DNA from: Phytoseiulus persimilis
Taxonomy: Eukaryota; Arthropoda; Arachnida; Mesostigmata; Phytoseiidae
Reading direction: 5' to 3'
DNA: 64,000 nucleotides
Assembly (NCBI GenBank): GCA_037576195.1
Contig: CM075103.1
Span: 38,818,959 to 38,882,958 of the forward strand
A program made the position numbers and the translations under genes. Below, piece by piece: positions 26,502-49,400 of the stretch. The notes under the pieces were generated by a model that saw only the letters and a program-made list of their open reading frames with translations, made no database searches and was not told the DNA's origin. How positions within the stretch are numbered: the stretch's first letter is position 1; the number at the start of each line of letters is the position of its first letter.

Positions 26502-28380
26502 AGCTAAGGCATGCTTCTGAAAATTCGCCTTAGCCTTGAGCTAAGGTTGGCTGTTTTTGAAATTTAGTCTTAGCCTTGAGCTAATGTATGCTTGTGGAAT
26601 TTAGTCTTGGGCTAAGGTTGGCTGTTTTTGAAATTTAGTCTTAGCCTTGAGCTAATGTATGCTTGTGGAATTCAGTCTTAGGCTAAGGCATGCTTCTGAA
26701 AATTCGCCTTAGCCTTGAGCTACATAATGTATGCTTGTGGAATTTAGTCTTGGGCTGAGGCATGCTTCTGGAATTTAGTCTTAGCGTTGAGCTAATGTAT
26801 GCTTGTGGAATTTAGTCTTAAGCTAAGGCATGCTTCTGAAAATTCGCCTTAGCGTTGAGCTGATGTATGCTTCTGAAATTTAGTCTTAGCGTTGAGCTAA
26901 TGTATGCTTGTGGAATTTGGTCTTAGCGTTGAGCTAATGTATGCTTGTGGAATTTAGTCTTGGGCTAAGGCATGCTTCTGAAAATTCGCCTTAGCCTTGA
27001 GCTAAGGTTGGCTGTTTGTGAAATTTAGTGTTAGCCTTGAGCTGATGTATGCTTGTGGGATTTAGTCTTAAGCTAAGGCATGCTTCTGAAAATTCGCCTC
27101 AGCCTTGAGCTAATGTATGCTTGCGGAATTTAGTCTAAAGCTAAGGTATGCTTCTGAAATTCAGTCTCAGCTTCGAGCTAATGTATGCTTCTGAAATTTA
27201 GTCTTAGCGTTGAGCTGATGTATGCTTGTGGAATTTAGTCTTGGGCTAAGGCATGCTTCTGAAATTTAGTGTTCGCCTCGAGCTAATGTATGCTTGTGGA
27301 ATTTAGTCTTAAGCTGAGGCATGCTCCTGAAAATTCGCCTTAGCCTTGAGCTAATGTATGCTTGTGGAATTTAGTCTTGGGCTAAGGCATGCTTCTGAAA
27401 TTTAGTCTTAGCTTTGAGCTAATGTTTGCTTCTGAAAATTAGTCTCAGCGTTGAGCTAATGTATGCTTGTGGAATTCAGTCTTGGGCTGAGGCATGCTTC
27501 TGAAATTTAGTCTCAGCCTTGAGCTAATGTATGCTTGTGGAATTTGGTCTTAGGCTAAGGCATGCTTCTGAAAATTCGCCTTAGCCTTGAGCTAAGGTTG
27601 GCTGTTTTTGAAATTTAGTGTTAGCCTTCAGCTAATGTATGCTTGTGGAATTCAGTCTTAAGCTAAGGTATGCTTCTGAAATTTAGTCTCAGCGTTGAGC
27701 TAATGTATGCTTGAGGAATCTAGTCTTAAGCTGAGGCATGCTTCTGAAAATTCGCCTTAGGCTAGGGCATGCTTCTGAAATTTAGTCTTAGCGTTGAGCT
27801 AATGTATGCTTGTGGAATTTAGTCTTGGGCTAAGGCATACTTCTGAAATTTAGTCTTGGCTTTGAGCTAATGTATGCTTGTTGAATTCAGTCTTGGGCTA
27901 AGGCATGCTCCTGAAAATTCGCCTTAGGCTAAGGCTTGCTTCTGAAATTTAGTCTTAGCCTTGAGCTAATGTATGCTCGTGGAATTCAGTCTTAGCGTTG
28001 AGCTAATGTATGCTTGTGGAATTCAGTCTTAGCGTTGAGCTAATGTATGCTTGAGGAATTTAGTCTTAAGCGAAGGTATGCTTCTGAAATTTAGTCTTAG
28101 CGTTGAGCTAATGTATGCTTCTGAAATTTAGTCTTAGCATTAAGCTAATGTATGCTTGTGGAATTTAGTCTTGGGCTAAGGCATGCTCCTGAAATTTAGT
28201 CTTAGCTTTGAGCTAATGTATGCTTCTGAAATTAAGTCTTAGCGTTGAGCTAATGTATGCTTGTGGAATTGAGTCTTAAGCTAAGGTATGCTTCTGAAAT
28301 TTAGTCTTAGCGTTGAGCTAATGTATGCTTGTGGAATTTAACCTTAAGGTAATGTATGCTTGTGGAATTTAGTCTTAAGC

Positions 28381-31300: not shown

Positions 31301-32472
31301 CTTGTGGAATTTAGTCTTAAGCTAAGGTATGCTTCTGAAATTTAGTCTCAGCGTTGAGCTAATGTATGCTTGAGGAATCTAGTCTTAAGCTAAGGCATGC
31401 TTCTGAAAATTCGCCTTCGGCTAGGGCATGCTTCTGAAATTTAGTCTTAGCGTTGAGCTAATGTATGCTTGTGGAATTTAGTCTTGGGCTAAGGCATGCT
31501 TCTGAAATTTAGTCTTAGCTTTGAGCTAATGTATGCTTGTGGAATTCAGTCTTGGGCTAAGGCATGCTTCTGAAAATTCGCCTTAGGCTAAGGCTTGCTT
31601 CTGAAATTTAGTCTTAGCCTTGAGCTAATGTATGCTTGTTTAATTCAGTCTTAGCGTTGAGCTGATGTATGCTTGTGGAATTTAGTCTTAAGCTAAGGTA
31701 TGCTTCTGAAATTTAGTCTTAGCGTTGAGCTAATGTATGCTTCTGAAATTTAGTCTCAGCCTTAAGCTAATGTATGCTTGTGGAATTTAGTCTTGGGCTA
31801 AGGCATGCTCCTGAAATTTAGTCTTAGCTTTGAGCTAATGTATGCTTCTGAAATTTAGTCTCAGCGTTGAGCTAATGTATGCTTGTGGAATTGAGTCTTA
31901 AGCTAAGGTATGCTTCTGAAATTTAGTCTTAGCGATGAGCTAATGTATGCTTGTGGAATTTAGTCTTAAGCTAATGTATGCTTCTGAAAATTCGCCTTAG
32001 GCTAATGTATGCTTGTGGAATTTAGTCTTAAGCCAAGGCATGCTTCTGAAATTTAGTCTTAGCCCTGAGCTAATGTATGCTTGTGGAATTCAGTCTTAGG
32101 CTGAGGCATGCTTCTGAAAATTCGCCTCAGGCTAAGGCATGCTTCTGAAATTTAGTCTTAGCCTTGAGCTAATGTATGCTTGTGGAATTTAGTCTTAAGC
32201 TAAGGCATGCTTCTGAAATTTAGTCTTAGCCTTGAGCTAATGTATGCTTGCGGAATTCAGTCTTAGGCTAAGGCATGCTTCTGAAAATTCGCCTTAGCCT
32301 TGAGCTAATGTATGCTTGTGGAATTTAGTCTTGGGCTAAGGCATGCTTCTGAGATTTAGTCTTAGCGTTGAGCTAATGTATGCTTGTGGAATTTAGTCTT
32401 AAGCTAAGGCATGCTTCTGAAAATTCGCCTTAGGCTAAGGCTTGCTTCTGGAATTTAGTCTTAGCCTTGAGC
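28381..32472 (+). repeat. Tandem 2046-bp higher-order repeat (two copies)
   Basis: From about 28381 the sequence repeats from 30427 with very few differences. The second copy begins abruptly after gtcttagcc at about 30420. It is nested within the second copy of the 6.05-kb duplication. Confidence 0.8.
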
Positions 32473-35400
32473 TAATGTATGCTTGTGGAATTCAGTCTTA
32501 GCGTTGAGCTAATGTATGCTTGTGGAATTTAGTCTTAAGCTAAGGTATGCTTCTGAAATTTAGTCTTAGCTTTGAGCTAAGATATGCTTGTGGAATTTAG
32601 TCTTAAGCTAAGGCATGCTTCTGAAAATTTGCCTTAGCTTTGAGCTAATGTATGCTTGTGGAATTCAGTCTTGGGCTAAGGCATGCTTCTGAAAATTCGC
32701 CTTAGGCTAGGGCATGCTTCTGAAAATCCGCCTTAGCCTTGAGCTAAGGTTGGCTGTTTTTGAAATTCAGTGTTAGCGTTGAGCTAATGTATGCTTGTGG
32801 AATTTAGTCTTAAGCTAAGGCATGCTTCTGAAAATTCGCCTTAGGCTAAGACTTGCTTCTGAAATTTAGTTTTAGCCTTGAGCTAATGTACGCTTGTGGA
32901 ATTCAGTCTTAGCGTTGAGCTAATGTATGCTTGTGGAATTTAGTCTTAAGCTGAGGCATGCTTCTGAAAATTCGCCTCAGGCTAAGGCATGCTTCTGAAA
33001 ATTCGCCTAAGCCTTGAGCTAAGGTTGGCTGTTTTTGAAATTTAGTCTTAGCCTTGAGCTAATGTATGCTTGTGGAATTTAGTCTTGGGCTAAGGTTGGC
33101 TGTTTTTGAAATTTAGTCTTAGCCTTGAGCTAATGTATGCTTGTGGAATTCAGTCTTAGGCTAAGGCATGCTTCTGAAAATTGGCCTTAGCCTTGAGCTA
33201 ATGTATGCTTGTGGAATTTAGTCTTGGGCTAAGGCATGCTTCTGAAATTTAGTCTTAGCCTTGAGCTAATGTATGCTTGTGGAATTTAGTCTTAAGCTAA
33301 GGCATGCTTCTGAAAATTCGGCTCAGGCTGGGGCATGCTTCTGAAAATTCGCCTCAGGCTAAGGCATGCTTCTGAAATTTAGTCTTAGCCTTGAGATTAT
33401 GTATGCTTCTGAGAATTCGCCTTAGGCTAATGTATGCTTGTGGAATTCAGTCTTAAGCTAAGGCATGCTTCTGGAATTCAGTCTTAGCGTTGAGCTAATG
33501 TATGCTTGTGGAATTTAGTCTTAAGCTAAGGCATGCTTCTGAAATTTAGTCTTAGCCTTGAGCTAATGTATGCTTGTGGAATTTAGTCTTGAGCCAAGGC
33601 ATGCTTCTGAAAATTCGCCTTAGGCTGGGGCATGCTTCTGAAAATAAGCCTCAGGCTAAGGCATGCTTCTGAAATTTAGTCTTAGCCTTGAGCTAATGTA
33701 TGCACGTGGAATTTAGTCTTAAGCTAAGGCATGCTTCTGAGAATTCGCCTTAGGCTGATGTATGCTTGTGGAATTTGGTCTTAAGCTAAAGCATGCTTCT
33801 GGAATTCAGTCTTAGCGTTGAGCTAATGTATGCTTGTGGAATTTAGTCTTAAGCTAAGGCATGCTTCTGAAAATTCGCCTTAGGCTAAGGCTTGCTTCTG
33901 GAATTTAGTCTTAGCCTTGAGCTAATGTATGCTTGTGGAATTCAGTCTTAGCGTTGAGCTAATGTATGCTTGTGGAATTTAGTCTTAAGCTGAGGCATGC
34001 TTCTGAAAATTCGCCTCAGGCTAAGGCATGCTTCTGAAAATTCGCCTAAGCCTTGAGCTAAGGTTGGCTGTTTTTGAAATTTAGTCTTAGCCTCGAGCTA
34101 ATGTATGCTTGTGGAATTTAGTCTTGGGCTAAGGTTGGCTGTCTTTGAAATTTAGTCTTAGCCTTGAGCTAATGTATGCTTGTGGAATTCAGTCTTAGGC
34201 TAAGGCATGCTTCTGAAAATTGGCCTTAGCCTTGAGCTAATGTATGCTTGTGGAATTTAGTCTTGGGCTAAGGCATGCTTCTGAAATTTAGTCTTAGCCT
34301 TGAGCTAATGTATGCTTGTGGAATTTAGTCTTAAGCTAAGGCATGCTTCTGAAAATTCGGCTCAGGCTGGGGCATGCTTCTGAAAATTCGCCTCAGGCTA
34401 AGGCATGCTTCTGAAATTTAGTCTTAGCCTTGAGATTATGTATGCTTCTGAGAATTCGCCTTAGGCTAATGTATGCTTGTGGAATTCAGTCTTAAGCTAA
34501 GGCATGCTTCTGGAATTCAGTCTTAGCGTTGAGCTAATGTATGCTTGTGGAATTTAGTCTTAAGCTAAGGCATGCTTCTGAAATTTAGTCTTAGCCTTGA
34601 GCTAATGTATGCTTGTGGAATTTAGTCTTGAGCCAAGGCATGCTTCTGAAAATTCGCCTTAGGCTGGGGCATGCTTCTGAAAATAAGCCTCAGGCTAAGG
34701 CATGCTTCTGAAATTTAGTCTTAGCCTTGAGCTAATGTATGCACGTGGAATTTAGTCTTAAGCTAAGGCATGCTTCTGAGAATTCGCCTTAGGCTGATGT
34801 ATGCTTGTGGAATTTGGTCTTAAGCTAAAGCATGCTTCTGGAATTCAGTCTTAGCGTTGAGCTAATGTATGCTTGTGGAATTTAGTCTTAAGCTGAGGCA
34901 TGCTTCTGAAAATTCGCCTCAGGCTAAGGCATGCTTCTGAAAATTCGCCTAAGCCTTGAGCTAAGGTTGGCTGTTTTTGAAATTTAGTCTTAGCCTTGAG
35001 CTAATGTATGCTTGTGGAATTCAGTCTTAAGCTAAGGCATGCTTCTGGAATTCAGTCTTAGCGTTGAGCTAATGTATGCTTGTGGAATTTAGTCTTAAGC
35101 TAAGGCATGCTTCTGAAATTTAGTCTTAGCCTTGAGCTAATGTATGCTTGTGGAATTTAGTCTTGAGCCAAGGCATGCTTCTGAAAATTCGCCTTAGGCT
35201 GGGGCATGCTTCTGAAAATAAGCCTCAGGCTAAGGCATGCTTCTGAAATTTAGTCTTAGCCTTGAGCTAATGTATGCACGTGGAATTTAGTCTTAAGCTA
35301 AGGCATGCTTCTGAGAATTCGCCTTAGGCTGATGTATGCTTGTGGAATTTGGTCTTAAGCTAAAGCATGCTTCTGGAATTCAGTCTTAGCGTTGAGCTAA

Positions 35401-37293
35401 TGTATGCTTGTGGAATTTAGTCTTAAGCTAAGGCATGCTTCTGAAAATTCGCCTTAGGCTAAGGCTTGCTTCTGGAATTTAGTCTTAGCCTTGAGCTAAT
35501 GTATGCTTGTGGAATTCAGTCTTAGCGTTGAGCTAATGTATGCTTGTGGAATTTAGTCTTAAGCTGAGGCATGCTTCTGAAAATTCGCCTCAGGCTAAGG
35601 CATGCTTCTGAAAATTCGCCTAAGCCTTGAGCTAAGGTTGGCTGTTTTTGAAATTTAGTCTTAGCCTCGAGCTAATGTATGCTTGTGGAATTTAGTCTTG
35701 GGCTAAGGTTGGCTGTCTTTGAAATTTAGTCTTAGCCTTGAGCTAATGTATGCTTGTGGAATTCAGTCTTAGGCTAAGGCATGCTTCTGAAAATTGGCCT
35801 TAGCCTTGAGCTAATGTATGCTTGTGGAATTTAGTCTTGGGCTAAGGCATGCTTCTGAAATTTAGTCTTAGCCTTGAGCTAATGTATGCTTGTGGAATTT
35901 AGTCTTAAGCTAAGGCATGCTTCTGAAAATTCGGCTCAGGCTGGGGCATGCTTCTGAAAATTCGCCTCAGGCTAAGGCATGCTTCTGAAATTTAGTCTTA
36001 GCCTTGAGATTATGTATGCTTCTGAGAATTCGCCTTAGGCTAATGTATGCTTGTGGAATTCAGTCTTAAGCTAAGGCATGCTTCTGGAATTCAGTCTTAG
36101 CGTTGAGCTAATGTATGCTTGTGGAATTTAGTCTTAAGCTAAGGCATGCTTCTGAAATTTAGTCTTAGCCTTGAGCTAATGTATGCTTGTGGAATTTAGT
36201 CTTGAGCCAAGGCATGCTTCTGAAAATTCGCCTTAGGCTGGGGCATGCTTCTGAAAATAAGCCTCAGGCTAAGGCATGCTTCTGAAATTTAGTCTTAGCC
36301 TTGAGCTAATGTATGCACGTGGAATTTAGTCTTAAGCTAAGGCATGCTTCTGAGAATTCGCCTTAGGCTGATGTATGCTTGTGGAATTTGGTCTTAAGCT
36401 AAAGCATGCTTCTGGAATTCAGTCTTAGCGTTGAGCTAATGTATGCTTGTGGAATTTAGTCTTAAGCTGAGGCATGCTTCTGAAAATTCGCCTCAGGCTA
36501 AGGCATGCTTCTGAAAATTCGCCTAAGCCTTGAGCTAAGGTTGGCTGTTTTTGAAATTTAGTCTTAGCCTTGAGCTAATGTATGCTTGTGGAATTTAGTC
36601 TTGGGCTAAGGTTGGCTGTTTTTGAAATTTAGTCTTAGCCTTGAGCTAATGTATGCTTGTGGAATTCAGTCTTAGGCTAAGGCATGCTTCTGAAAATTGG
36701 CCTTAGCCTTGAGCTAATGTATGCTTGTGGAATTTAGTCTTGGGCTAAGGCATGCTTCTGAAATTTAGTCTTAGCGTTGAGCTAATGTATGCTTGTGGAA
36801 TTTAGTCTTAAGCTAAGGCATGCTTCTGAAAATTCGCCTCAGGCTAAGGCATGCTTCTGAAATTTAGTCTTAGCTTTGAGCTAATGTATGCTTCTGAAAT
36901 TCAGTCTTAGCGTTGAGCTAATGTATGCTTGTGGAATTTAGTCTTAAGCTAAGGCATGCTTCTGAAAATTCGCCTTGGGCAAGGGCATGCTTCTGAAAAT
37001 CCGCCTTAGGCTAAGGCATGCTCCTGAAATTTAGTGTTAGCCTTGAGCTAATGTATGCTTGTGGAATTTAGTCTTGGGCTAAGGCATGCTTCTGAAAATC
37101 CGCCTTAGCCTCGAGCTAAGGTTGGCTGTCTTTGAAATTTAGTCTTAGCTTTGAGCTAATGTATGCTTGTGGAATTTAGTCTGAGGAATTTAAGCTGAGG
37201 TATGCTTCTGAAATTTAGTCTTAGCGTTGAGCTAATGTATGCTTGTGGAATTCAGTCTTAGCGTTGAGCTAATGTATGCTTGTGGAATTTAGT

Positions 37294-38944
37294 CTTGGCT
37301 AACACTAAATTTCAGAAGCATGCCTTAGCCTAAGACTGAATTCCACAAGCATACATTAGCTCGAGGCTAAGACTAAATTTCAGAAGCATGCCTCAGCCTA
37401 AGACTAAATTCCACAAGCATACATTAGCTGAAGGCTAAGACTAAATTTCAGAAGCATGCCTTAGCCTAAGACTGAATTCCACAAGCATACATTAGCTGAA
37501 GGCTAAGACTAAATTTCAGAAGCATGCCTTAGCCTAAGACTAAATTCCACAAGCATACATTAGCTCAAAGCTGAGACTAAATTTCAGAAGCATGCCTTAG
37601 CCTAAGACTAAATTCCACAAGCATACATTAGCTCAAAGCTGAGACTAAATTTCAGAAGCAAGCCTTAGCCTAAGACTGAATTCCACAAGCATACATTAGC
37701 TCGAGGCTAAGACTAAATTTCAGAAGCATGCCTCAGCCTAAGACTAAATTCCACAAGCAAACATTAGCTCAAAGCTAAGACTAAATTTCAGAACCAAGCC
37801 TTAGCCTAAGACTGAATTCCACAAGCATACATTAGCTGAAGGCTAAGACTAAATTTCAGAAGCATGCCTTAGCCTAAGACTAAATTCCACAAGCATACAT
37901 TAGCTCAAAGCTGAGACTAAATTTCAGAAGCATGCCTCAGCCTAAGACTAAATTCCACAAGCATACATTAGCTGAAGGCTAAGACTAAATTTCAGAAGCA
38001 TGCCTTAGCCTAAGACTGAATTCCACAAGCATACATTAGCTGAAGGCTGAGACTAAATTTCAGAAGCATGCCTCAGCCTAAGACTGAATTCCACAAGCAT
38101 ACATTAGCTGAAGGCTAAGACTAAATTTCAGAAGCATGCCTTAGCCTAAGACTAAATTCCACAAGCATACATTAGCTCAAAGCTGAGACTAAATTTCAGA
38201 AGCAAGCCTTAGCCCAAGACTGAATTCCACAAGCATACATTAGCTCGAGGCTAAGACTAAATTTCAGAAGCATGCCTCAGCCTAAGACTAAATTCCACAA
38301 GCAAACATTAGCTCAAAGCTAAGACTAAATTTCAGAACCAAGCCTTAGCCTAAGACTGAATTCCACAAGCATACATTAGCTGAAGGCTAAGACTAAATTT
38401 CAGAAGCATGCCTCAGCCTAAGACCGAATTCCACAAGCATACATTAGCTGAAGGCTAAGACTAATTTTCAGAAGCATGCCTTAGCCTAAGACTAAATTCC
38501 ACAAGCATACATTAGCTCAAAGCTAAGACTAAATTTCGAAAACAGCCAACCTTAGCTCGAGGCTAAGGCTAATTTTCAGAAGCATGCCTTAGCCTAAGAC
38601 TAAATTCCACAAGCATACATTAGCTCAAGGCTAAGACTAAATTTCAGAAGCATGCCTTAGCCCAAGACTGAATTCCACAAGCATACATTAGCTCAACGCT
38701 TAGACTAAATTCCAAAAACAGCCAACCTTAGCTCAAGGCTAACGCGAATTTTCAGAAGCATGCCTTAGCCTAAGACTAAATTCCACAAGCATACATTAGC
38801 CCAAAGCTAAGACTAAATTTCAGAAGCAAGCCTTAGCCTAAGACTGAATTCCACAAGCATACATTAGCTGGAGGCTAAGACTAAATTTCAAAAACAGCCA
38901 ACCTTAGCTCAAGGCTAAGGCAAATTTTCAGAAGCATGCCTTAG
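37294..38944 (-). repeat. Satellite array, block C (inverted orientation)
   Basis: From about 37294 the same satellite reads on the opposite strand (plus strand aatttcagaagcatgcc, tccacaagcatacattagc). The units here are unusually regular 68-bp dimers. A variant, gaaccaagcc, recurs at 37791 and 38335, giving a local higher-order period of 544 bp. It ends at the Copia LTR. I see no gene here. Confidence 0.95.
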
Positions 38945-39275
38945 TGTCGAAGATTCCGTGCACTTTAATCTTAATCTGAATGATGAGAGCCTCTGGTTCC
39001 GGATACTCGAAGAGTCGTAAGCACCGTTCTTCAGAAAGCGGACTGAGATCTGATACAGCGTCGGCGTAGGGTACGCGACGATTACGACGACTACAGCGAT
39101 AGATAGAATACGATCTTTATTGAAGTAAAAGAAGCTGCTTATATATCCTATGGATCGGGGTTACATGAGAGGGTAACTGTAGACGTGCGCTTCCGTCAGG
39201 GACGCCATACCATGGCCATCGGCTCGTCAGCCGATGTCGCTGTATGCTTGGCCGTCTGAGCGAAATATTACAACA
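38945..39275 (-). repeat. Copia 3' LTR (331 bp)
   Basis: On the plus strand it starts tgtcgaag and ends attacaaca, giving TG...CA. The inner end is inferred from the terminal TG/CA and the adjacent G-rich tract on the minus strand. It has a TATA-like TATATAA on the minus strand (about 39139-39146) and AATAAA (39116-39121). Only 38945-39138 is matched by the right LTR. Confidence 0.8.
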
Positions 39276-39288
39276 AAGCCCCCCATTT
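39276..39288 (-). other. Copia polypurine tract
   Basis: The minus strand reads GAAATGGGGGGCTT directly before the LTR start TGTTG. Its position fits the plus-strand primer site. A 12-base copy of its core (plus gccccccatttc) recurs at about 40040-40051 inside the cargo. Confidence 0.6.
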
Positions 39289-39551
39289 CAAGCAGGCGGG
39301 CAAGAATGCATATACGCGTAATTCGTAATAATCAAAATGAACCTTATCCGAAAATATGTCGCCCAGAATTCTATACTATGATTCTAGCCATACGTATCAT
39401 ATATTCACATTCTAGAGCGTGAGGCTGATTCGGGAGATTCCTTGAATGTTGGTTCTTGTTGTTCGATCTCCTCGCTTATGTCACCAGACTCCCTTAGTTC
39501 GATGTTGAGTCTGTCGAGTTTCATATTGTCTTGAAATCTCGAGCTCTGAAG
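39289..39551. other. Leader between the Copia polypurine tract and the cargo genes
   Basis: No convincing gene. The plus strand has an AT-rich stretch (catatattcac, about 39397-39407) that could be promoter-like for the cargo gene starting at 39552. Confidence 0.3.
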
Positions 39552-40870
39552 ATGTCTCCGTTGATTGCGCGTCTCACTCGATTTCGACGGTTTCGTGGTT
39601 CCTATGGTGTTGCTCAAGCTGAGGAATACGAAATGAGTGAGGTCAATCTTGACGGTGATCTGGAGCCTCGTTATGTTCCGGACGTGATTGTTTCCGGTCC
39701 TGTTTCCTGTTGTACACATCCGCTCCTTCTGTTGCTCGTCCTTTGCCTATTGTCATTGGTTGGGAATGTGGCAATGTTGGCCTGGATCACTGAGCGTTAG
39801 TATCGTCGATATTTTGATGCGTATATTTTTATGCCTTTCTGGTGTTCGATATATCGACCATATTTGCAGATCCTACTTATCCTCATGGTGATGGCGTATC
39901 GTCAGCTCATCCGTTGAAGGAACTCGGGTCTGCTCCAACGAATCTGTCCGTTTTGCTTTTTCCGGATGGATCTTGTTTGTGTTCGTTGGCGGCGACCGTT
40001 AATGTTTATAATGGCAGGGCTGTAGGGAACATCACACGGCCCCCCATTTCGAGGAATGTCTCGATTGGATTGTCGGCGTCCGGGGCAATTGAACTGGATG
40101 CTTCTGGGGAAACCACTCCAGAACACATCCCCGCACAAACGAACGCTTCTGTTGATGTTACGGAAACGACTTCCTCTCCTTCGCCGATTTTGTTGAATGC
40201 TGATGGCGCGTGGACGTCTGCTTCGGATCACTCTCTCCCCGTCGGTGGCGGAACACGTGTTGCAGAGCAGTCTGTAACGGTTCCGCAGTCGGCCGATCCA
40301 GCTTTGATTTCAGCTAGTGATCGTGTTGTTCCCATCGCGGTGCCTGCTTCTAATAGATCGATCGAGGTTCCAATCGTCGTGAATCAGGCAGGCAATTTTG
40401 TTGAGCGTCGTCTTGAGGATTCGCTAATTGACAACACTCGCTCGACTACAATTCGACCGGAGTCGGAGATTTCAACAATAATCGCCGACGTCATCCACCC
40501 GCATCGTTCTTCAACACAAGAAGTTACTGCTGCACAATCGGAGAGACCCATGATTGTTTCGACTATGCTCAAGATCAAGGAGCTGATGAAAGATCTGAAG
40601 AATCGTCCACACAAACACTACTATAGACCAAACAAATTTGTGTGCTGGCATAGATCTCATAATCTCTCCGTATGTGTTTTTACTGCAGACTTTATCTGCC
40701 TGATACAGCCTACTCGATATGACTCCAGCGGTCGACCCAATCCTCTTAGGGTCTCTGAGTCGCTGAAAGTAGCGAATCTATCTGAGTCAGATCGAGCGTC
40801 CTTTGAGAAGCTGTACGGGACGATACCGAGATGCAGAAATTTTTCTTGGTACATTGGAATATTTCTCTGA
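39552..40870 (+). CDS. Predicted spliced type II membrane glycoprotein (cargo gene 1)
   Basis: Exon 1 (39552-39795) starts at ATG and encodes a basic, Arg-rich cytoplasmic tail of about 57 residues, then a hydrophobic segment at about 58-79 (HPLLLLLVLCLLSLVGNVAM). A predicted intron at 39796-39869 (gttag...tttgcag, 74 bp) joins in frame to exon 2 (39870-40870). The product would be about 414 residues. The long ectodomain is rich in Ser/Thr/Pro/Val and has eight N-glycosylation sequons (NLS, NIT, NVS, NAS, NRS, NLS, NLS, NFS), with several Cys near the C-terminus. AATAAA follows at 40880-40885. It lies opposite to Copia transcription. I recognise no family. A surface or attachment role is inference. 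Without splicing, exon 1 ends in a short ORF at 39800. Confidence 0.6.
39796..39869 (+). other. Predicted 74-bp intron in cargo gene 1
   Basis: GT at 39796 and AG at 39868-39869, with a pyrimidine/AT-rich tract before the acceptor (atatttgcag). Removing it links two open frames across a stop codon. It is oriented on the plus strand, so it would not be spliced from the Copia genomic RNA. Confidence 0.55.
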
Positions 40871-40879
40871 TCGATTCTG

Positions 40880-40885
40880 AATAAA
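40880..40885 (+). terminator. Poly(A) signal of cargo gene 1
   Basis: AATAAA ten bases after the stop codon of the plus-strand ORF. Confidence 0.55.
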
Positions 40886-41184
40886 TCACTTCAATTGTAC
40901 TTATCATGCATCCTCTCTTTTATCGTGGTATATCGTCCTGTGTTTCTGCATACATTTTATGCTCCGTATGCTTTAAGAAATTGTGATTTCTTGTCCCTAT
41001 AAAATGGCCTGACTCTTCTCCATTGGTGTGCCGAGTCGTTTCTCTGCCAAACAAAGAAGCCTTTCGAGTAAAGAAAAAGGGAACTCTCTGATCCAGAAAT
41101 CGAATGTAAGTCTTGTCCGACCTGTTTTTCTCTTTGTCATATGGGCAAGTTCTAGGTTCTGAATTGATCCCTTTACACACATAG
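40886..41184. other. Intergenic stretch in the Copia cargo
   Basis: About 300 bases, AT-rich, with no supported gene. Minus-strand ORFs here are short and have no recognisable features. Confidence 0.4.
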
Positions 41185-41741
41185 ATGCGTTCCGGAAATC
41201 ACGGTGCCCTGGAGAGCTCGCAGTCAACGACTGCCGACGACCTCGCGTACCGTACGTTGTACGATTGCAGTGGCTCCTGGAGGTCGAGAAATCTCAGACG
41301 TGTGCGGGTGGCTGCCATTGCAGCTCTTTGTACGTGACCGTTTCAGGCGTCGCCTTTGAGGTCGCGCAACGCGTGGACCCGTTTGCTGATCGTGTACATA
41401 GCAAAGTCACCCGTCCTCTCCCACCGGCCCTACACACCATCGAGGGCCCGGTGGTGACGACGGGTGTGGAGACCTCATCATCCTCCGACATCTTTCATCA
41501 CATCATAACCGAAGGACGTTCGATTGACATTCACACCTCATATCTCATCTGTCGTTCATACTCGAAATTCAAAATTTGTGTGGATGGTGATCAGAATGTA
41601 TGTGTGGTCCGGCCAAATTCAAATTCCAGTCTCAAAATCATCACAGCTCATCAATTCATCATCAACATGGACATGTTTGGTCGGACAGTCCTGGCGACCG
41701 ACGCATGTGAGAATAAAAGGAAGCTCATAAGTTATTCTTAA
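41185..41741 (+). CDS. Unrecognised cargo ORF region 2, possibly spliced
   Basis: Two overlapping plus-strand frames are open. One starts at ATG 41185 and gives about 55 residues ending in a basic then hydrophobic run (RNLRRVRVAAIAALC), an arrangement like exon 1 of cargo gene 1, followed by gtacgt, a donor-like sequence. The other is open from about 41265 to the stop at 41741 and carries Cys residues (CAGGCHC, YLICRS, KFKICVDG) and one NSS sequon, but has no ATG near its start. I infer an interrupted or spliced gene but cannot fix the exons. An aataaa lies within its end at about 41713. No family is recognised. Confidence 0.35.
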
Positions 41742-42079
41742 GAGAACGTGTCGTCGATTTTCTTGTTTGTGTACTCAAGATCTAGATGCCATCCGATGCT
41801 CGGATGATGCTGCAGCTATTCTGGAGCTTTGAAGCGGTACAGCCATTCGGATTCCTAAGTGGGTTTCATGTTGCTTGTTAGCGATTGATTTCTTCGTCTA
41901 AACATTCTTTTAGTGAGCATCTGGGGTCAAGCTATCCCTGTTTCGTAGCTTTCCTTCTCTCGGATTCTTCCCCTCGCTTTATGGCTCGGGTCATGCCTTA
42001 AAAGATGTCTCCGACGTTTCGGAGTTCACAACGTTTTTGGTGTGTACCATCTCAGTGACTCTCAACTTCATCTACAACT
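41742..42079 (+). other. Possible exon or leader upstream of cargo ORF 3
   Basis: A pyrimidine-rich cttttag acceptor-like site lies at about 41906-41912. From there a plus-strand frame is open to about 42170 and includes a hydrophobic stretch (FTTFLVCTISVTLNFIY) that overlaps the start of the 42080 ORF in another frame. It may be an exon or chance. Confidence 0.25.
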
Positions 42080-42682
42080 ATGTCTGCGATCCGGCCCGAT
42101 GCATGCCCGTGTTGCGGGTACAAGGGCCCGTCCCCAACAATCAGACCAACGGTCACCTGGGATGATGTCGAAGATCCCAGCTGTGACATGGCTCTGTGGA
42201 AATCGCTGCCACGGATCTGCTACTGCTTGGTTGCAGATTGCTGGTGTGAACACCAGCACTCGTTGCTCAGGTTCAACCACCTGGGCCGAGATTTCGAGGG
42301 ACTGCGGTTCCTCGATGCTATGCAGATGCCGAGCAGTGTCCGCTCGGCCGTGGAGAGCGCCAGGGTCCATCTCCATCTGGATCGCTTTCCAGCTCCGTCG
42401 AGGCGCGGATTCGACGAGTTCAACAGTCTAATCCGCGACACCCTCGGCGACCACGAGCGCCGCATCCCAGCCTCGTTGATCGTCGCCGAGTGGGAGGCGA
42501 GGACCCCAGAATACCGGGGTCGCCTGGAAGATCTGGCGGCGAACCGCGTCATCGTGGAGGAGGTGAAGAAGATCCGCACCTACCTCTACGCAAATCCGGA
42601 TCTCTGGCCGAGAGGCCTAACGGAAAATGCTTTCACGAGCTGGTTCAACTCCGGCTGTGATTTTATTATTCCTCCTTGTTAA
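42080..42682 (+). CDS. Unrecognised Cys-rich cargo protein (ORF 3)
   Basis: An ATG-initiated, 200-codon ORF. The N-terminal third is rich in Cys and Trp (CPCCGYKG near residues 9-16, then CDMALWKSLPRICYCL, then CWCEHQH), suggesting metal binding or disulfides. The rest is charged and helical-looking, ending near a short hydrophobic C-terminus. There is no signal peptide. The stop codon TAA overlaps an AATAAA (42681-42686), consistent with a transcribed plus-strand gene. It lies back to back with the minus-strand envelope-like ORF, 145 bp away. I do not recognise the family. Confidence 0.5.
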   Translation: MSAIRPDACPCCGYKGPSPTIRPTVTWDDVEDPSCDMALWKSLPRICYCLVADCWCEHQHSLLRFNHLGRDFEGLRFLDAMQMPSSVRSAVESARVHLHLDRFPAPSRRGFDEFNSLIRDTLGDHERRIPASLIVAEWEARTPEYRGRLEDLAANRVIVEEVKKIRTYLYANPDLWPRGLTENAFTSWFNSGCDFIIPPC

Positions 42683-42686
42683 TAAA
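42681..42686 (+). terminator. Poly(A) signal overlapping the stop of cargo ORF 3
   Basis: TAATAAA places the stop codon and the AATAAA hexamer in overlap, leaving a minimal 3' UTR. Confidence 0.5.
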
Positions 42687-42826
42687 TTGTTATATGTATC
42701 TCATGTGATTCTTCTCTGAGTTAGTCTGGCAGGTATGTTACTTACTCATCTCATGTTTCTCTTTTTCTCTACGTGAGCCTGACTATTTACTTTGCTGACT
42801 AGTCAGTCTTCTCTCGCCTTCAAAGC

Positions 42827-43378
42827 TTATTCTGAAGGGGGAGACTGCTGTCGCTCGATCCCGCTGCCGGAGGCTTCGTCAATGCTTTGGACGGTTGTTC
42901 TGTACGGCATGGTCGGATCGTCTACTATAGAAGTGTCCACTGGCTCGTAAGACAAACGAGCTCTGAACTTTAGTAGTTTGAGCATCACAATTCCCGAAAG
43001 CGTACTGAGTGACACTACCCCTTGAATGGCGGATAGGTACTTCCAGAAATTGCAGTTCGGTGTTTGTGGAATTGGTGGACATGGCTCAACAGTCGGCTTC
43101 GGTGGCAGAGTTCGATTGCGATACTCGGGCCACAGTCTGAGTCCTCCTGAGGTTGGAGAAGACTCTTTGATACAGGGAGCGTAATCACTGGTGTGTAGTT
43201 CACACAATGCCAGTGGTGTACAAAATGATGAGAATCTACCAGAATCCAGTTTAACTAACATACATGGAGAGTTTCGTGTTATGCATTTGGCGTCGCAGTC
43301 TGAGTAGCTAAAATATTGGTTAGAGGGGATTATGAATATTGTTACTGCTACGAATACCTGCTGCATTACTGACGCCAT
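42827..43378 (-). CDS. Envelope-like type I membrane protein, third ORF of the Copia element
   Basis: The 183-codon ORF has a hydrophobic signal-like N-terminus (about residues 5-24), a Cys-rich ectodomain with about nine Cys and one NRT sequon, a hydrophobic segment (YLSAIQGVVSLSTLSGIVML, about 115-134) and a Ser/Asp/Glu-rich tail. The layout is that of a small type I membrane protein. Its start overlaps the end of pol: ATG at 43378, and a second in-frame ATG at 43366 that shares a base with the pol stop (TAATG). It is encoded on the same strand as gag-pol and could be expressed by reinitiation or a spliced subgenomic RNA. The family is not recognised. Envelope function is inferred from position and topology only. 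Confidence 0.65.
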   Translation of the reverse strand: MASVMQQVFVAVTIFIIPSNQYFSYSDCDAKCITRNSPCMLVKLDSGRFSSFCTPLALCELHTSDYAPCIKESSPTSGGLRLWPEYRNRTLPPKPTVEPCPPIPQTPNCNFWKYLSAIQGVVSLSTLSGIVMLKLLKFRARLSYEPVDTSIVDDPTMPYRTTVQSIDEASGSGIERQQSPPSE

Positions 43379-46300
43379 CTCTCAAGTCCTGACAGTTCTC
43401 TCTGATTGAGGAATACTGACTTTACACAGGGCTTGGTTAAGTAGTCCGCTCTTTGATTGGCGCTTCCAACGTGCTCGATCCCAATTTCTTGATTCGAGTA
43501 GAGCTGTCGAATGTAATGAAATCTGAGTTCCATATGCTTAGCTCTACGATAGTGTCTGGCATTCTTGAGCAATTGAATGGCTGACATCGAGTCTATCTGG
43601 ATGATCGGCTTTTCTGGGATACCCAATTCTCCCAGAAGGTTGCGAAGCCAGAGCGCTGACTTGATGCATTCTGTAGATGCCACGATCTCTGATTCCATGG
43701 AGGAAAGCGAAATGTTCGCTTGTTTTGTGGAGCTCCAAATAATTGGGCCCCCCTGTCTGAGTATCAGACATCCTGAAGTAGACTTGCGATCCTCAATGGA
43801 TCCAGCGAAGTCTGAATCGCTGAAGTACAGCGTGCCTTGGGTGTCATCACTTCTGTACGTGATGCCCAGATCTGAGGTTGTCTTCAAGTATCTCAGAACT
43901 CTCAAGCCAGCCTGGAAATGCTGAGGAGTTGATTTGTCCATATATCTTGATAGGTAGGAAGTGACAAAAGAAATGTCAACTCTCGTACCGCAAGCCAAAT
44001 ATAGGAGAGCTCCTATCAGAGAACGATATTCGGTATTAGAGCACGGACCGTTGGTCTCGATAGAGTATATCGAATTGTCACATGGTGTGACTGCTCCTTT
44101 CGAATCTGACATACCGAATCTCTGTACCAACTCGTCCACGAATTTCTTTTGATGAATGTGGACCGAGAAGTCGCTGCCTCTTTCGATCTGAAGACCTAGA
44201 AAGTATCTAAGACCAGAAGTAGTGATCTCGAATTCTTTCCTGAGGGAAGTTATGAATTCCTCCGCCTGTCTTTCAGTCTTCGTTGCAAGTATGGCGTCAT
44301 CGACCCATATGCACAAGAGCATGCGATTTTCTCCATTCTTGAAGAAGATACAGCTGTCAGTTTTGCTCTGTTGAAGTCCTCTGGACAGAAGGATCTTCGT
44401 TAGCTTATCAAAGAAATTTCGGCTTGACTGCTTGAGGCCATATATGCTTCTCAGTAGTTTCAATACCTTGTTGGCCTGTACTCCTCTTACGCCTTCAGGC
44501 ACCTCAAGATAGAGGTCTTCCTCGAGTTCTGCTTGAAGAAAAGCTGCGCGTACATCAAATTGATTTAGGAAAAGTTTTTCCTGCGCTGCTAGACTGAGGA
44601 TCGTTCTGATTCCTTCAGCTCGGGATACGGGGCTGTATATCTTGTCTGCAAAGAAGTCTATTTCTTTCTTCTGCGAATATCCCTTCGCAACTACTCGAGC
44701 CTTGTAACGTCCTGTGCCATCTGGGTTAGCCTTGTACTTGAATACCCATTTGGAGCCAATGGCCTTACGTCCAGGTGGTAGTGTTGCGGGAGTCCACACC
44801 TTCATGTCAGCCATTGCCTGAAGTTCTTCTTCAACGGCCTTCGTCCAATTGACGCGATCGGGGCTTGCCATTGCTTCTTGATAAGTCATTGGCGTTTGGC
44901 TTTTTGGCTGAGCGGTGTCGGCTGCTGCCCTTTCCTTTTTCGATATCCCACTAAGATGGTCGAGGTCAGCCACTATCTGCAGTCTTTCCGTACGTTTCTT
45001 GTTTGCCTTGGGATTAATGCGTACGAAACCTTCTTCGTCGCTTTCGTAATCGCTTGAGGCGCTTTTGTACATGGGTGCTGCTGGCTTTGGTGATTTTATT
45101 CTTGAACCTGTGACCTCCGTATCGTGATTGGCTTCTTTCGCAATGTGCGCTGCTTCCGCAGTATTTTCCGAAGCACTTGTTTTTCCACTTGCCTTGGTTC
45201 TGCCAGAACCTTGCCTTTTAGTGGAAGCGATCTTCGCGAATGTTACATCCTTCGATCGCATGATAATTCGTTTCTCTGGGATGTAGACACGAAATCCAAG
45301 ATCGTAGTCTAGATACCCAAAGAATATCCCCGCGATTCCGCGGTCATCCAGCTTCCCATTTGGGTTCTGATTGTGTACGTAGCACGGTGTGCCAAATGCG
45401 TACATTCTGCTGGTGAATGGCTTTCGCCTGTATATCATCTCGAAAGGCGACTGTAGAGTCTTTTCATTTATCAGTACTTGGTTCAAAACTTGAACACAGA
45501 AAAGGATCGCCTGGTCCCAAAGGAACTTCTCATTTTCGAGGCCTGCTCCGATCAACACTGATCGAGCTAGATTCACGAGAGTTCTGTTTCCTCTCTCTGC
45601 TTTTCCTGTCAAACGGGGTTGTCCTGGAGGGGCGAACGTTTGTTCTGCTCCGATCCTTTCCAGGATCTTCTTAACCTTTTGGTTTCTGAACTCCGTTCCG
45701 TTGTCACTGTGCAACCTCTGAATGTTTTCGCCAACTACGTTTCTGAACCATTTTACGTAGGAGGCAACGTATCGATAAGTGTCGCTCTTTTTCTGGAGAA
45801 ACTCGACCTTTCGATGGCTGGTTGCTTCGTCAGTGAATAGAAGGAAATGCTTTGCTTTTTCTATTGACTCTACATTGGGCGAACAAAGGTCTGCCGTTAT
45901 GATGCCCGGCTTCTGAGCTTTCGCCTGATCAGGGCGGCTCCTGTACGTGACTCGGGTGAGCTTCCCCTCCAGACAGGCATCACATTGGTCCAGATCATCA
46001 ATGTACTTGATACCCTGCTGGTTCAAATATTTAATCACGTACTGCCTATTAACATGGGCGAACGTTTCATGCAGGCTTCTAAGGCTCTGCGTCTGTGCAC
46101 TCATCGTCTTTTCTGAGCCAATGGCGCTCATCACTTGGCTTTCAGACGGAATATCATGATTCATGTCGTCAAGATCGCTGTCTGCGTCTTGGTTTACGGA
46201 TTCTTGATCGCTTGCCTGATCTTGTAGTAATCCGATCTCCGAGTCCATTCTTAATCTGTAGAGGCCTTCTATCTTGGGTACTCGGATCCTCATATCGTTT

Positions 46301-47733
46301 CTCGAAATTATGAGGTGATTCCTTTTGAACGTCACTTCGAAATCATCATCTGTCAATTGACTCACAGAGAGGAGATTCTTCCGAACTGAGGGGACAAGTA
46401 AAACATTTTTAAGCTCTAAAGCCATTCGCTGCTTAGACTCTCCGACAGTCAGCTCGGCTGTGCCAGAAGCGGTGACACGCAGTTTCTGGTTGCTTGCTAA
46501 GGTGACGGCGCGCATGTCGGTTTGTTGGTCAAAGCTAGTGAACCACTTTCTTGAACTACTGCAATGGTGCGAAGCGCCGGAATCTACGAGGAACTCATCG
46601 GTTTCGCTCGTGTCATACTTGACGTGAGCCAGGAGTGCGACGGCAGTGCTTGCTCGAGCATGCGATCTGTGCTGTCCGCTTCCTCCTTGATAACCTTGAT
46701 CTCGCCGAGGACGGGTACACTGGGACTTGAAATGTCCTGTTTCACCGCAGTTGTAACACTTTACTTGTCTTCTGTTTGGTCTATTACTCTGGTGGCGTGA
46801 ACGGTTCTGTTGACCATAGCCACTGCTGCTGGATCCTTGTGAATGATGGCTGGGGGCATTTCTTCGATGAGAACGATTTTGGAATCTACATTTTGGTGCA
46901 AACCTGCGACCAACTCTCATCTGAGAAAGCATAGCAGTCGCCTGATCCAATTCCTTGGATGGTCTTTGGCGAATTGCTTCATTCTTGATTATTTCCATCA
47001 GACTGGAGACATCCCTATCGCCTTCTGGTCGGGCTGAGAAAGCCATACGAAGGGGTTCCCAGCTATGTGGCAGAGCATTGAGCAGTTGTTCAACCTGAAC
47101 CTTCTGATCGATCTCAATTCCAGAATCCGTGAGTTCGGCTTGAAGATCGCGGAACCTATCCAGGTTCTGGTCAGCAGTCTTGCTCTTATTGAACTTGAAC
47201 TGCATCAATTTCGCGATCGCCGAACCTTGCCGCAGAGCGGCTCGGACTCCAAACTTGCTTGCGATCTGGGACCAGATATCCGCTGCTCTGACATCCTGAG
47301 TTTGTCCGTAAAACATTTGGACAATCAGTTTGTCGTTGATCGAAGAGAACAATTGAAGTCTTGCTTTTCGATTTGCTCTATCATAGCGAACCTTGACTTT
47401 CTTTTGATCATCATTAAGCTCGGTAGCTGGTTCGGTTGGGATTGGTTCAACTAGGTCTCCTTTCACGACTTCCCAAACATCTACGGTTTGTTGTAGGAAA
47501 ATGGGCATTAAGGATTTCCAGCTCAAATAGTTTTGACCAAACAGACCTAGGGTCACTGGGCATGGGGCAAGCCTGGTATAGTTCGAGTCGGGTGGACGGG
47601 GCTCTGAATCGTCCTTCTTTAGCGCGGCAGGTTCATCTTCCTGCGCAGCCAGATCGTATTGGTAGTCGTCGTCTGCCATGGCCCTAGGTAGGTCGCTCCA
47701 AGTGGGACCGATGTCAAAAGGAAGTATTTGCAC
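43366..47733 (-). CDS. Copia Gag-Pol polyprotein, intact
   Basis: One 1455-codon frame. From the N-terminus: Gag capsid region (LGLFGQNYLSWKSLMPIFLQ), a CCHC knuckle CYNCGETGHFKSQC at about residue 320, and protease FLVDSGASHH. Integrase follows with an HHCC region (HETFAHVN to CDACLEGK) and core Asp in ITADLC, Asp in LHSDNGTEF and Glu in GKAERGNR. RT has FDVRAAFLQAELEEDLYLEV and WVDD in place of YVDD. RNase H has YFSDSDFAGS, STSGCLI and SSMESEIVAS. Integrase before RT defines Ty1/Copia. No frameshift or stop is seen, and the length is typical. Translation may start at 47733 or, more likely, at the later ATG 47679 (MADDDYQYDL). Confidence 0.95.
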   Translation of the reverse strand: MQILPFDIGPTWSDLPRAMADDDYQYDLAAQEDEPAALKKDDSEPRPPDSNYTRLAPCPVTLGLFGQNYLSWKSLMPIFLQQTVDVWEVVKGDLVEPIPTEPATELNDDQKKVKVRYDRANRKARLQLFSSINDKLIVQMFYGQTQDVRAADIWSQIASKFGVRAALRQGSAIAKLMQFKFNKSKTADQNLDRFRDLQAELTDSGIEIDQKVQVEQLLNALPHSWEPLRMAFSARPEGDRDVSSLMEIIKNEAIRQRPSKELDQATAMLSQMRVGRRFAPKCRFQNRSHRRNAPSHHSQGSSSSGYGQQNRSRHQSNRPNRRQVKCYNCGETGHFKSQCTRPRRDQGYQGGSGQHRSHARASTAVALLAHVKYDTSETDEFLVDSGASHHCSSSRKWFTSFDQQTDMRAVTLASNQKLRVTASGTAELTVGESKQRMALELKNVLLVPSVRKNLLSVSQLTDDDFEVTFKRNHLIISRNDMRIRVPKIEGLYRLRMDSEIGLLQDQASDQESVNQDADSDLDDMNHDIPSESQVMSAIGSEKTMSAQTQSLRSLHETFAHVNRQYVIKYLNQQGIKYIDDLDQCDACLEGKLTRVTYRSRPDQAKAQKPGIITADLCSPNVESIEKAKHFLLFTDEATSHRKVEFLQKKSDTYRYVASYVKWFRNVVGENIQRLHSDNGTEFRNQKVKKILERIGAEQTFAPPGQPRLTGKAERGNRTLVNLARSVLIGAGLENEKFLWDQAILFCVQVLNQVLINEKTLQSPFEMIYRRKPFTSRMYAFGTPCYVHNQNPNGKLDDRGIAGIFFGYLDYDLGFRVYIPEKRIIMRSKDVTFAKIASTKRQGSGRTKASGKTSASENTAEAAHIAKEANHDTEVTGSRIKSPKPAAPMYKSASSDYESDEEGFVRINPKANKKRTERLQIVADLDHLSGISKKERAAADTAQPKSQTPMTYQEAMASPDRVNWTKAVEEELQAMADMKVWTPATLPPGRKAIGSKWVFKYKANPDGTGRYKARVVAKGYSQKKEIDFFADKIYSPVSRAEGIRTILSLAAQEKLFLNQFDVRAAFLQAELEEDLYLEVPEGVRGVQANKVLKLLRSIYGLKQSSRNFFDKLTKILLSRGLQQSKTDSCIFFKNGENRMLLCIWVDDAILATKTERQAEEFITSLRKEFEITTSGLRYFLGLQIERGSDFSVHIHQKKFVDELVQRFGMSDSKGAVTPCDNSIYSIETNGPCSNTEYRSLIGALLYLACGTRVDISFVTSYLSRYMDKSTPQHFQAGLRVLRYLKTTSDLGITYRSDDTQGTLYFSDSDFAGSIEDRKSTSGCLILRQGGPIIWSSTKQANISLSSMESEIVASTECIKSALWLRNLLGELGIPEKPIIQIDSMSAIQLLKNARHYRRAKHMELRFHYIRQLYSNQEIGIEHVGSANQRADYLTKPCVKSVFLNQRELSGLERWRQ

Positions 47734-47756
47734 TTATACTTACTCTCAGGTACTCT

Positions 47757-47776
47757 GGAGTATCGTGCTGATAACG
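47757..47776 (-). other. Copia primer-binding region
   Basis: Inside the right LTR the minus strand reads CGTTATCAGCACGATACTCC. The TTATCAG core is reminiscent of Copia primer sites that pair with initiator tRNA, but the match cannot be verified here. Confidence 0.4.
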
Positions 47777-47970
47777 TGTCGAAGATTCCGTGCACTTTAA
47801 TCTTAATCTGAATGATGAGAGCCTCTGGTTCCGGATACTCGAAGAGTCGTAAGCACCGTTCTTCAGAGAGCGGACTGAGATCTGATACAGCGTCGGCGTA
47901 GGGTACGCGACGATTACGACGACTACAGCGATAGATAGAATACGATCTTTATTGAAGTAAAAGAAGCTGC
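47777..47970 (-). repeat. Copia 5' LTR, truncated (194 bp)
   Basis: Identical to 38945-39138 except one base (a/g in ttcttcagaaagcgg). It stops at gaagctgc, just short of the TATA box present in the left LTR. LINE sequence follows at once. About 136 bp of the U3 end is absent. Confidence 0.88.
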
Positions 47971-48590
47971 CTGGAGTTCTCGACTTCTATTATGCTGGTT
48001 AGTTTCTGAACTGCTTGGATGGTTGATCTGCTTCTGCGGAAGCCGAACTGGTTGTCGCTTATGATTTCCCGTCTGTCGAGCTCTGCTACTAGTCTGTTGT
48101 TAATGATACTCTCGAATGATTTTCCCAGGGTGCTCAGCAGGCATATCGGCCTGTACGAGTTCGGGAGCTCTGCGGGTTTCCCTGGTTTGTGGATCAGTGC
48201 CACCTCTGCCTTCTTCCAGGCTTTTGGGAAGATCTCCGACTCCATAAGGTTGCTTATAGCTCGTTTGTATTCGTCTTTAAATTCGTTCATGATTGGTCTC
48301 GTTAACTTTGCGGGTATTTTATCAGGTCCCGGAGCCTTATTGGTCGCTAATTTTCTACTCACCTCTTTTTGCTCTTCGTTGCTTATTGGCTCATAGGCCA
48401 CCGAGTTTGCTCTATCGCTCCTGACGTGTCTGGCTGAGTGTGTATGGTCCGGGAACAGTGTGTCGAGAGCTTCTCTGATTAGCTCCTTGGTTAAGTCAGT
48501 TTTCTTGATATGTAGCTTCTCCATGACTATTTTGTACCCCGTGCTCCAGGGGTTTCTCGCCACTTCTCCGCATAGGTCCCTCCATATCTG
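47971..48590 (-). pseudogene. LINE reverse transcriptase, N-terminal fragment
   Basis: Frame with NKAPGPDKIPAKL, VALIHKPGKPAELPNSYRPICLLSTLGKSFE and FGFRRSRSTIQAVQKL, the standard first RT blocks of LINEs. It then runs across 47970 into the Copia LTR and stops at 47949. The catalytic xADD box is absent. The upstream endonuclease frame is displaced by one base at the T8 run. Confidence 0.85.
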
Positions 48591-48598
48591 TTTTTTTT

Positions 48599-49400
48599 GC
48601 GTTCATAATAGCTTTGTTTAACTCGTTTCTCGCTTGCCTGTAAAGGATTTTACTTTCTTCCCATCTTTCAGGTCTCGCCCGTTGACTCATGCGTCTAGTT
48701 TTCACGCAGTTCCTCCTGAGTGCAGCAATGCTCTCATTGAACCAGTAGGCCCGGTTTCTCCTCGTCGGAATCTCCACCATTGAAGCTTTGCAGGCTTTTT
48801 TTATTTCTTCCGTCAGCTGTCTGGCTCCTAACCGCTTTCCTCTTACCCGGTTCTCCAGTTCTCGTCGGCATTTATCCATGTCGAGCTCTCTCCTGGTTTC
48901 CTTCTGGCTGTAAGTGGGGCTTTCGTTGTTGTCCTGCAACTTACATAGGATGTAATTATGGTCACTCAGTGACTCTATGTCTAGAACCATCCAGTCTTTA
49001 ATTGTTTCTCTGACTCTGTCATTGCAGATCGTGAGGTCCAGAAAGCTTTGCTGCCTTCCTCTTTCGAACGTCGGTTTGAAGCCGTTGTTTACCACTGACA
49101 GTCCTAGTCGCTCTAGCCATTCCTCAAGTACGTTCCCTCTCGCAATCGTGCGTTTGCTACCCCAGAGGGCGGACGCGGCGTTGAAATCGCCGGTGATAAG
49201 GAGTCCCCGATCTCGATGTTGTTGCTGTGTTTCGCGGATGCTAGCTTCTAGCTGCTCAAGCCAGTTAATGAAATCTATTGTGCTTTCATTTGGGCTGAAA
49301 TAACATGAGTATACTCTAGTTTCGTCGTAATCGCACCAAGCATAGCCTACTCCTGACTCTTTTAGCGCAGAAATGCGCTTTTCTTCGGGCGTGTTTACTA
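48599..49400 (-). pseudogene. LINE endonuclease C-terminus and linker
   Basis: The open minus-strand frame includes VGYAWCDYDETRVYSCYF, then LLITGDFNAASALWGS (the GDFNA motif of APE-like endonucleases) and SLSDHNYILC (the catalytic SDH motif), followed by a basic linker. The endonuclease would nick target DNA for LINE integration. The N-terminal catalytic motifs are lost. The frame ends in a shift at a run of eight T on the plus strand (48591-48598). Confidence 0.8.

What the first reader, a model, noticed from the sequence alone, without database searches (positions are those of the whole stretch)
38945..47970. Ambisense Copia element carrying an envelope-like ORF and opposite-strand cargo genes
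Between matching LTRs there is an intact Copia gag-pol, a signal/TM-bearing ORF overlapping the pol stop, and then about 3.4 kb whose best coding evidence (ATG starts, predicted intron, three AATAAA signals) is on the opposite strand. Metazoan Copia elements normally contain only gag-pol. A Copia element with both an envelope-like gene and antisense membrane-protein cargo is not something I know to be described. The alternative is capture of host DNA, or a second insertion between pol and the 3' LTR.
Basis: partly seen in the sequence, partly recalled or inferred. Interest (0 to 1): 0.88.

Follow-up and report, generated by a model that had tools for sequence, protein, structure and literature searches.

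The report
Copia retrotransposon with antisense glycoprotein genes
A family of virus-like jumping genes carries, besides its usual genes, a small envelope-like gene and, on the opposite DNA strand, genes for two related membrane proteins; the layout recurs in many related families of this genome and the genes look selected, which hints that these elements may spread between cells like viruses.

Summary
The element at 38945-47970 (gag-pol on the minus strand) is one of many copies. All 15 near copies fetched carry the antisense region collinearly, at least in part. Five of seven LTR pairs tested have 5-bp target duplications and three have identical 331-bp LTRs, so the family was recently active.

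The plus strand holds three genes. B is spliced and encodes a predicted type II membrane glycoprotein. C is a smaller type II relative, broken here but intact in nine other copies. D encodes 200 aa of unknown fold. All three and the sense env-like ORF show pooled pN/pS of 0.25-0.43.

B and C share a C-terminal four-cysteine head. Its motif occurs 18 times antisense and never sense in 17 diverged env-bearing loci (11 of 17 positive; 4 of 6 among loci fetched after the motif was set). So the module belongs to several Copia families and is not DNA captured by one copy.

Best explanation: a surface-protein set for spread between cells. Expression and function are inferred. D is often decayed. Plant Gypsy elements have antisense ORFs at this place; I found no report for such a Copia.

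The parts
38945..39275 (-). 3' LTR, 331 bp, TG...CA
   Evidence: 40 genomic hits scored of 71 candidates; 5-bp TSDs at 5 of 7 LTR pairs of sister copies
39552..39795 (+). B exon 1: cytosolic N-terminus and transmembrane segment
   Evidence: ATG at 39552, donor GTTAGT at 39796 in 10 of 10 copies; pN/pS 0.43, 13 of 14 open
39870..40870 (+). B exon 2: ectodomain with 8 N-glycosylation sequons and C-terminal four-cysteine head
   Evidence: Acceptor TTTGCAG before 39870 in 10 of 10 copies; pN/pS 0.29, 10 of 12 open
40880..40885 (+). AATAAA after B
   Evidence: Present in 10 of 10 aligned copies
41185..41741 (+). C: type II membrane protein related to the B head; frame broken in this copy by a small deletion near 41329
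   Evidence: Open in nine other copies; pN/pS 0.33, 8 of 9 open; hypervariable, 74-95% identity per bin
42080..42682 (+). D: 200-aa protein, unknown fold
   Evidence: Third-position excess p=4e-6; pN/pS 0.25 but only 6 of 16 copies open; relatives at 25-52% identity
42681..42686 (+). AATAAA overlapping the D stop
   Evidence: Present in 8 of 10 aligned copies
42827..43378 (-). env-like ORF, 183 aa: predicted signal peptide, cysteine-rich ectodomain, TM, tail
   Evidence: 16 of 16 aligned copies open, pN/pS 0.27; 143 genomic matches, fragments included; six ectodomain Cys invariant over 9 sequences
43366..47733 (-). gag-pol, one open frame
   Evidence: Pfam Retrotran_gag_2, zf-CCHC, rve, RVT_2
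47776..47970 (-). 5' LTR, truncated to its inner 195 bp
   Evidence: 99% identical to the matching part of the 3' LTR; joined to a LINE reverse-transcriptase fragment

Best explanation
This is an ambisense Copia (Pseudoviridae) retrotransposon family. It encodes gag-pol and a small type I membrane protein on the sense strand, and two related type II membrane glycoproteins (B, C) plus a helper (D) on the antisense strand between pol and the 3' LTR. Shown: the genes belong to the element, look selected, have conserved splice and (for B and D) poly(A) signals, and the B/C head recurs antisense in diverged families. Inferred: antisense mRNAs are made from integrated DNA, the proteins reach the cell surface, and with the env-like protein they move element particles between cells, such as soma to germline. 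C would be the variable, partner-binding part.
For: Copies. TSDs and identical LTRs. Selection. Splice and poly(A) signals. Head motif 18 antisense vs 0 sense in 17 loci; in the six loci fetched after the motif was set, 4 positive, none sense. Four invariant Cys in 13 heads. B-C profile match E=6e-5, probability only 64%. Env-like family. C is a hypervariable block between flanks of 96-100% identity.
Against: No transcript or protein evidence. No match to a known glycoprotein or fold; only weak hits. The env-like ectodomain is small. The three copies with identical LTRs (L012, L013, L014) all have a broken D, and L012 a frameshifted B exon 2, so D at least is not needed in each replicating copy, or such copies are complemented. 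Six of 17 diverged loci show no head motif. Without the C-terminal position filter there is one sense match, in L031. AATAAA-type signals were not found after every antisense gene, C of the near family included.
Confidence: 0.5

Rival explanations
1. The antisense glycoproteins serve conflict, not transmission: surface decoys, superinfection exclusion or interference with host immunity, made from integrated copies.
For: C is hypervariable; antisense placement lets integrated copies express them without genomic RNA, as for retroviral antisense genes (PMC10186651 passages).
Against: They lie beside a sense env-like membrane protein in 11 of 17 diverged loci (all 17 were chosen for having the env-like ORF), which fits one surface apparatus.
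Confidence: 0.25
2. The products act in regulation of the element (antisense RNA or nuclear protein), as proposed for plant antisense ORFs and shown for retroviral HBZ; the membrane features are incidental.
For: Precedents in PMC7264820, PMC11963269 and PMC10186651 (passages).
Against: TM segments, sequons and a conserved four-Cys head with pN/pS 0.29-0.33 fit membrane proteins better. D could still be a regulator.
Confidence: 0.12
3. Host DNA capture or a second mobile element inserted between pol and the 3' LTR of this copy.
For: As an origin of D only: two D relatives at C3:37.32-37.33 Mb with no Copia sequence found nearby.
Against: All 15 near copies share the region, eight LTR pairs are spaced 8.7-8.9 kb, and diverged families carry the same module.
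Confidence: 0.02
4. The glycoprotein genes were acquired as a block from a virus, and the clade then diversified; function as in the best explanation.
For: LTR elements of other lineages have captured viral glycoproteins (PMC12440569 passages).
Against: No clear similarity to a viral protein in Pfam or PDB, and protein searches returned only five relatives without names.
Confidence: 0.11

Closest known systems
Plant Gypsy elements with antisense ORFs between pol and 3' LTR (Grande gene23, RIRE2, Retand TRP28)
   Same: Antisense additional genes in the same place; Retand has them in all clusters described, and Grande gene23 is transcribed from its own upstream promoter (PMC11963269, PMC7264820 passages)
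   Different: Those are plant elements, Retand of the Gypsy superfamily, with nuclear or DNA-binding-type products; here Copia, with predicted type II membrane glycoproteins plus a sense env-like gene
Sirevirus (Copia) with env-like gene
   Same: Copia pol and often an envelope-like gene (PMC3599292 abstract start, listing)
   Different: Described there as plant-specific; no antisense glycoprotein genes known to me; the env-like ORF here is only 183 aa
MDG1-group sORF2 elements of Drosophila
   Same: A short transmembrane protein in an LTR element, reported there to enable transfer of capsids from somatic cells into the oocyte (PMC11952523 abstract)
   Different: MDG1 elements are Gypsy (recalled); the abstract names no antisense genes; here the small protein has a conserved cysteine-rich ectodomain
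Retroviral antisense genes (HTLV-1 hbz, HIV-1 asp)
   Same: Protein made from the antisense strand of an integrated LTR element (PMC10186651 passages)
   Different: One antisense gene driven from the 3' LTR; here three separate antisense genes, two of them related
Bdelloid rotifer LTR elements with captured ORF3
   Same: Extra ORFs, env among them, in LTR elements of an invertebrate (PMC5408684 abstract start and passages)
   Different: No antisense gene orientation in the passages seen

Membership tests
Copia / Pseudoviridae | Integrase before reverse transcriptase, RVT_2-type RT, Copia gag | tested here: met
   Retrotran_gag_2 84-259, rve 609-706, RVT_2 978-1218 (E=1e-54)
Copia / Pseudoviridae | LTRs with TG...CA and 5-bp target-site duplication | tested here: met
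   331-bp LTRs, TSD at 5 of 7 pairs of sister copies; not testable for the window copy, whose 5' LTR is truncated
Sirevirus | Plant host and Sirevirus branch of the RT tree | not tested
   Host unnamed; no RT tree was built
Elements with retroviral-type Env | Recognisable class I-III fusion glycoprotein | tested here: inconclusive
   No clear Pfam or PDB sequence match; fold model weak (mean pLDDT 50.8) with no clear match
sORF2/FAST-like small transmembrane fusogens | Short single-pass protein with fusogen hallmarks | tested here: inconclusive
   183 aa with one predicted TM after the signal peptide, but a conserved cysteine-rich ectodomain; fusion activity not testable here
Retand/Grande-type antisense ORF elements | Gypsy pol and TRP28 domain (Retand) | tested here: not met
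   Pol is Copia; no Pfam match at E<=1 in the window's B, C-region or D ORFs

The most novel reading that the evidence does not exclude
A clade of ambisense, enveloped Copia viruses (of an animal, if the host is one): Gag-Pol and one small glycoprotein from the sense strand, a two-protein attachment set from the antisense strand of the integrated copy, with the attachment gene C diversifying by recombination under host pressure.
Probability: 0.3. Interest if true: 0.93.

Novelty: new variant of a known kind. Interest (0 to 1): 0.77.

Why it matters
Copia elements outside plants are generally taken to be gag-pol only and confined to one cell (recalled). A recently active Copia clade with three selected membrane-protein genes, two of them related and on the antisense strand, would mean that virus-like spread may have evolved in Pseudoviridae as well, and that an LTR element can split its genes between genomic RNA and integrated DNA. 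It makes the question of how such elements cross cells directly testable.

Tried and rejected

Papers: search listings, abstracts and found passages were seen, never whole texts: PMC11952523 abstract and outline; PMC11963269, PMC12440569, PMC5408684, PMC11673190, PMC7264820, PMC10186651 passages; others in listings only. That I found no such Copia element in print rests on searches of an open-access library, whose lists were capped (20 of 31, 20 of 58, 15 of 82 and 12 of 3,216 shown).

Full report
What is there. The window is the last 64 kb of contig C3 of a 181-Mb genome. The element lies at 38945-47970 with gag-pol on the minus strand. Pfam gives the Copia order: gag, zinc knuckle, integrase, RVT_2 reverse transcriptase. 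The 3' LTR is 331 bp with TG...CA ends. The 5' LTR keeps only 195 bp and runs straight into a LINE reverse-transcriptase fragment, so this copy has lost the outer part of its 5' LTR.

Copies. The LTR query had 71 candidates, of which 40 were scored and matched. Among them are nine pairs spaced 8.67-8.86 kb; one of these (C2:5592013/5600686) proved to be a rearranged tandem array, which leaves eight. I fetched 15 near copies (L012-L026). In one search all 15 carry C and D at least in part; 14 carry B at least in part (none found in the stretch of L019; L024 has an internal deletion; L025 and L026 have B split by an insertion); 14 carry the whole env-like ORF (L020 keeps only a piece). Of seven LTR pairs tested, five have perfect 5-bp target-site duplications; the two without are the tandem array and C2:6985199. 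LTR identity is 331/331 in three, 330/331 in two (one of them the tandem array), 0.95 and 0.92 in the others. The family was active recently.

Antisense genes. B: an exon from the ATG at 39552 to 39795 encodes a cytosolic part and a transmembrane segment; a 74-nt intron GTTAGT...TTTGCAG follows; exon 2 (39870-40870) encodes an ectodomain with eight N-glycosylation sequons. Both splice sites and the AATAAA after B are present in 10 of 10 aligned copies. C: 188 aa with a short cytosolic part, a transmembrane segment and an ectodomain, from the ATG at 41185. It is open in nine other copies but frame-shifted in the window by a small deletion. D: 200 aa with a cysteine-rich N-terminus; its stop overlaps an AATAAA present in 8 of 10 copies. 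Topologies rest on hydropathy and inspection, not on a trained predictor.

Selection. Pooled pN/pS among open copies is 0.29 for B exon 2 (10 of 12 open), 0.43 for B exon 1 (13 of 14), 0.33 for C (8 of 9), 0.25 for D (6 of 16; five with a stop, five off frame) and 0.27 for the env-like ORF (16 of 16). The input was 17 sequences (window, L012-L027); those that did not align end to end were left out of each count. The pairs are not independent, so these are summaries, not tests. Codon-position changes in ten copies are significant for D (p=4e-6), weak for C (p=0.013) and not significant for B (p=0.19).

A hypervariable cassette. Against the window copy, nine copies are 96-100% identical in the bins over B exon 2, env and the pol end, but 74-92% in the 41195-41444 bin over C. 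Synonymous distance in C is 0.41 between L018 and L021, while it is at most 0.07 in B exon 2 among ten open copies that include both. That mosaic is what recombination between diverged elements would give (inference).

Diverged families. The env-like ORF has 143 genomic matches (150 of 167 candidates scored, fragments counted apart), many at 26-42% identity, with six ectodomain cysteines invariant over nine sequences. I read 17 diverged env-bearing loci (L027, L028, L030-L038, L048-L053), chosen for their env-like match. B and C end in the same head: four cysteines invariant over 13 sequences, the first three spaced CX8-10CX7C. The motif was drawn from heads of nine loci and set. In one search (window and 11 diverged loci, no position filter) it gave 15 antisense matches and one sense match (L031), against 0.00-0.10 per strand in shuffles. 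Requiring it to lie 50-80 residues from the ORF end, a filter added later, the 71 kb downstream of env in the 17 loci hold 18 antisense and 0 sense matches; 11 of 17 loci are positive, seven with exactly two. Controls under the same filter: 1 match in 30 kb of arbitrary genomic DNA, 0 in the rest of the window, 0 in the pol part. The six loci fetched after the motif was set are the independent part: 4 of 6 positive, no sense match. The six negative loci are L028, L031, L033, L035, L052 and L053; L028, L031 and L033 carry D, and L031 a piece of C. By eye, L033 and L052 hold other retroelement sequence and L035 a tandem array. In L037, L038, L050 and L051 the second antisense gene has a long part before its transmembrane segment. 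The profile comparison of B and C heads gave E=6e-5 but a probability of only 64%, so their common descent rests mainly on the shared cysteine pattern, topology and position.

Outside this genome. D found one relative (92%), the env-like profile three (98%, 27%, 23%), the head profile one. None has a name, and whether any comes from another species is not shown.

How it most likely works. Genomic RNA from the 5' LTR would give Gag-Pol; the env-like ORF, whose ATG lies inside the end of pol, needs splicing or translational coupling. B, C and D need antisense mRNAs from integrated DNA. I propose that the env-like protein and B/C form a surface set that lets particles cross cell borders. The closest functional precedent is the short transmembrane sORF2 of Drosophila MDG1 elements (PMC11952523, abstract). 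Rivals are immune decoys or exclusion factors, and a regulatory role as in plant antisense ORFs. No expression data were available. The decay of D in the three copies with identical LTRs speaks against D being needed in each copy.

Novelty. Antisense ORFs between pol and the 3' LTR are known in plant elements, env-like genes in plant Copia (listing), and antisense proteins in retroviruses. In my searches (capped lists) I saw no Copia element with antisense membrane-protein genes. Hence 'new variant of a known kind'.

Noticed in passing
window 6-3792, 7784-9209, 20453-38890 and 55279-61281: Large arrays of a 31/37/68-bp satellite, with inverted copies between about 36.0 and 38.7 kb; the element's 3' LTR sits directly against such an array.
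   Followed up: partly
window 47949-49095: Minus-strand LINE fragments (RVT_1, Exo_endo_phos_2) fused to the truncated 5' LTR of the element.
   Followed up: partly
L029:2369-3118 and L056 (C3:37.32 and 37.33 Mb): Two stretches, 97.6% identical over 2.1 kb, each with an intact 250-codon D-like frame; no Copia sequence found in the 7 kb of L029: a host or domesticated D gene, or an old remnant.
   Followed up: partly
G000 C2:5594926-5599610 and C2:5663044-5677872: D-like matches repeated about every 1.39 kb, most with frames of 413-415 codons: local tandem amplification of the D segment.
   Followed up: no
window 47740-47780 (minus): Just inside the 5' LTR, a stretch resembling the complement of a tRNA-Ile anticodon arm (recalled), so a half-tRNA primer as in copia is possible.
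   Followed up: no
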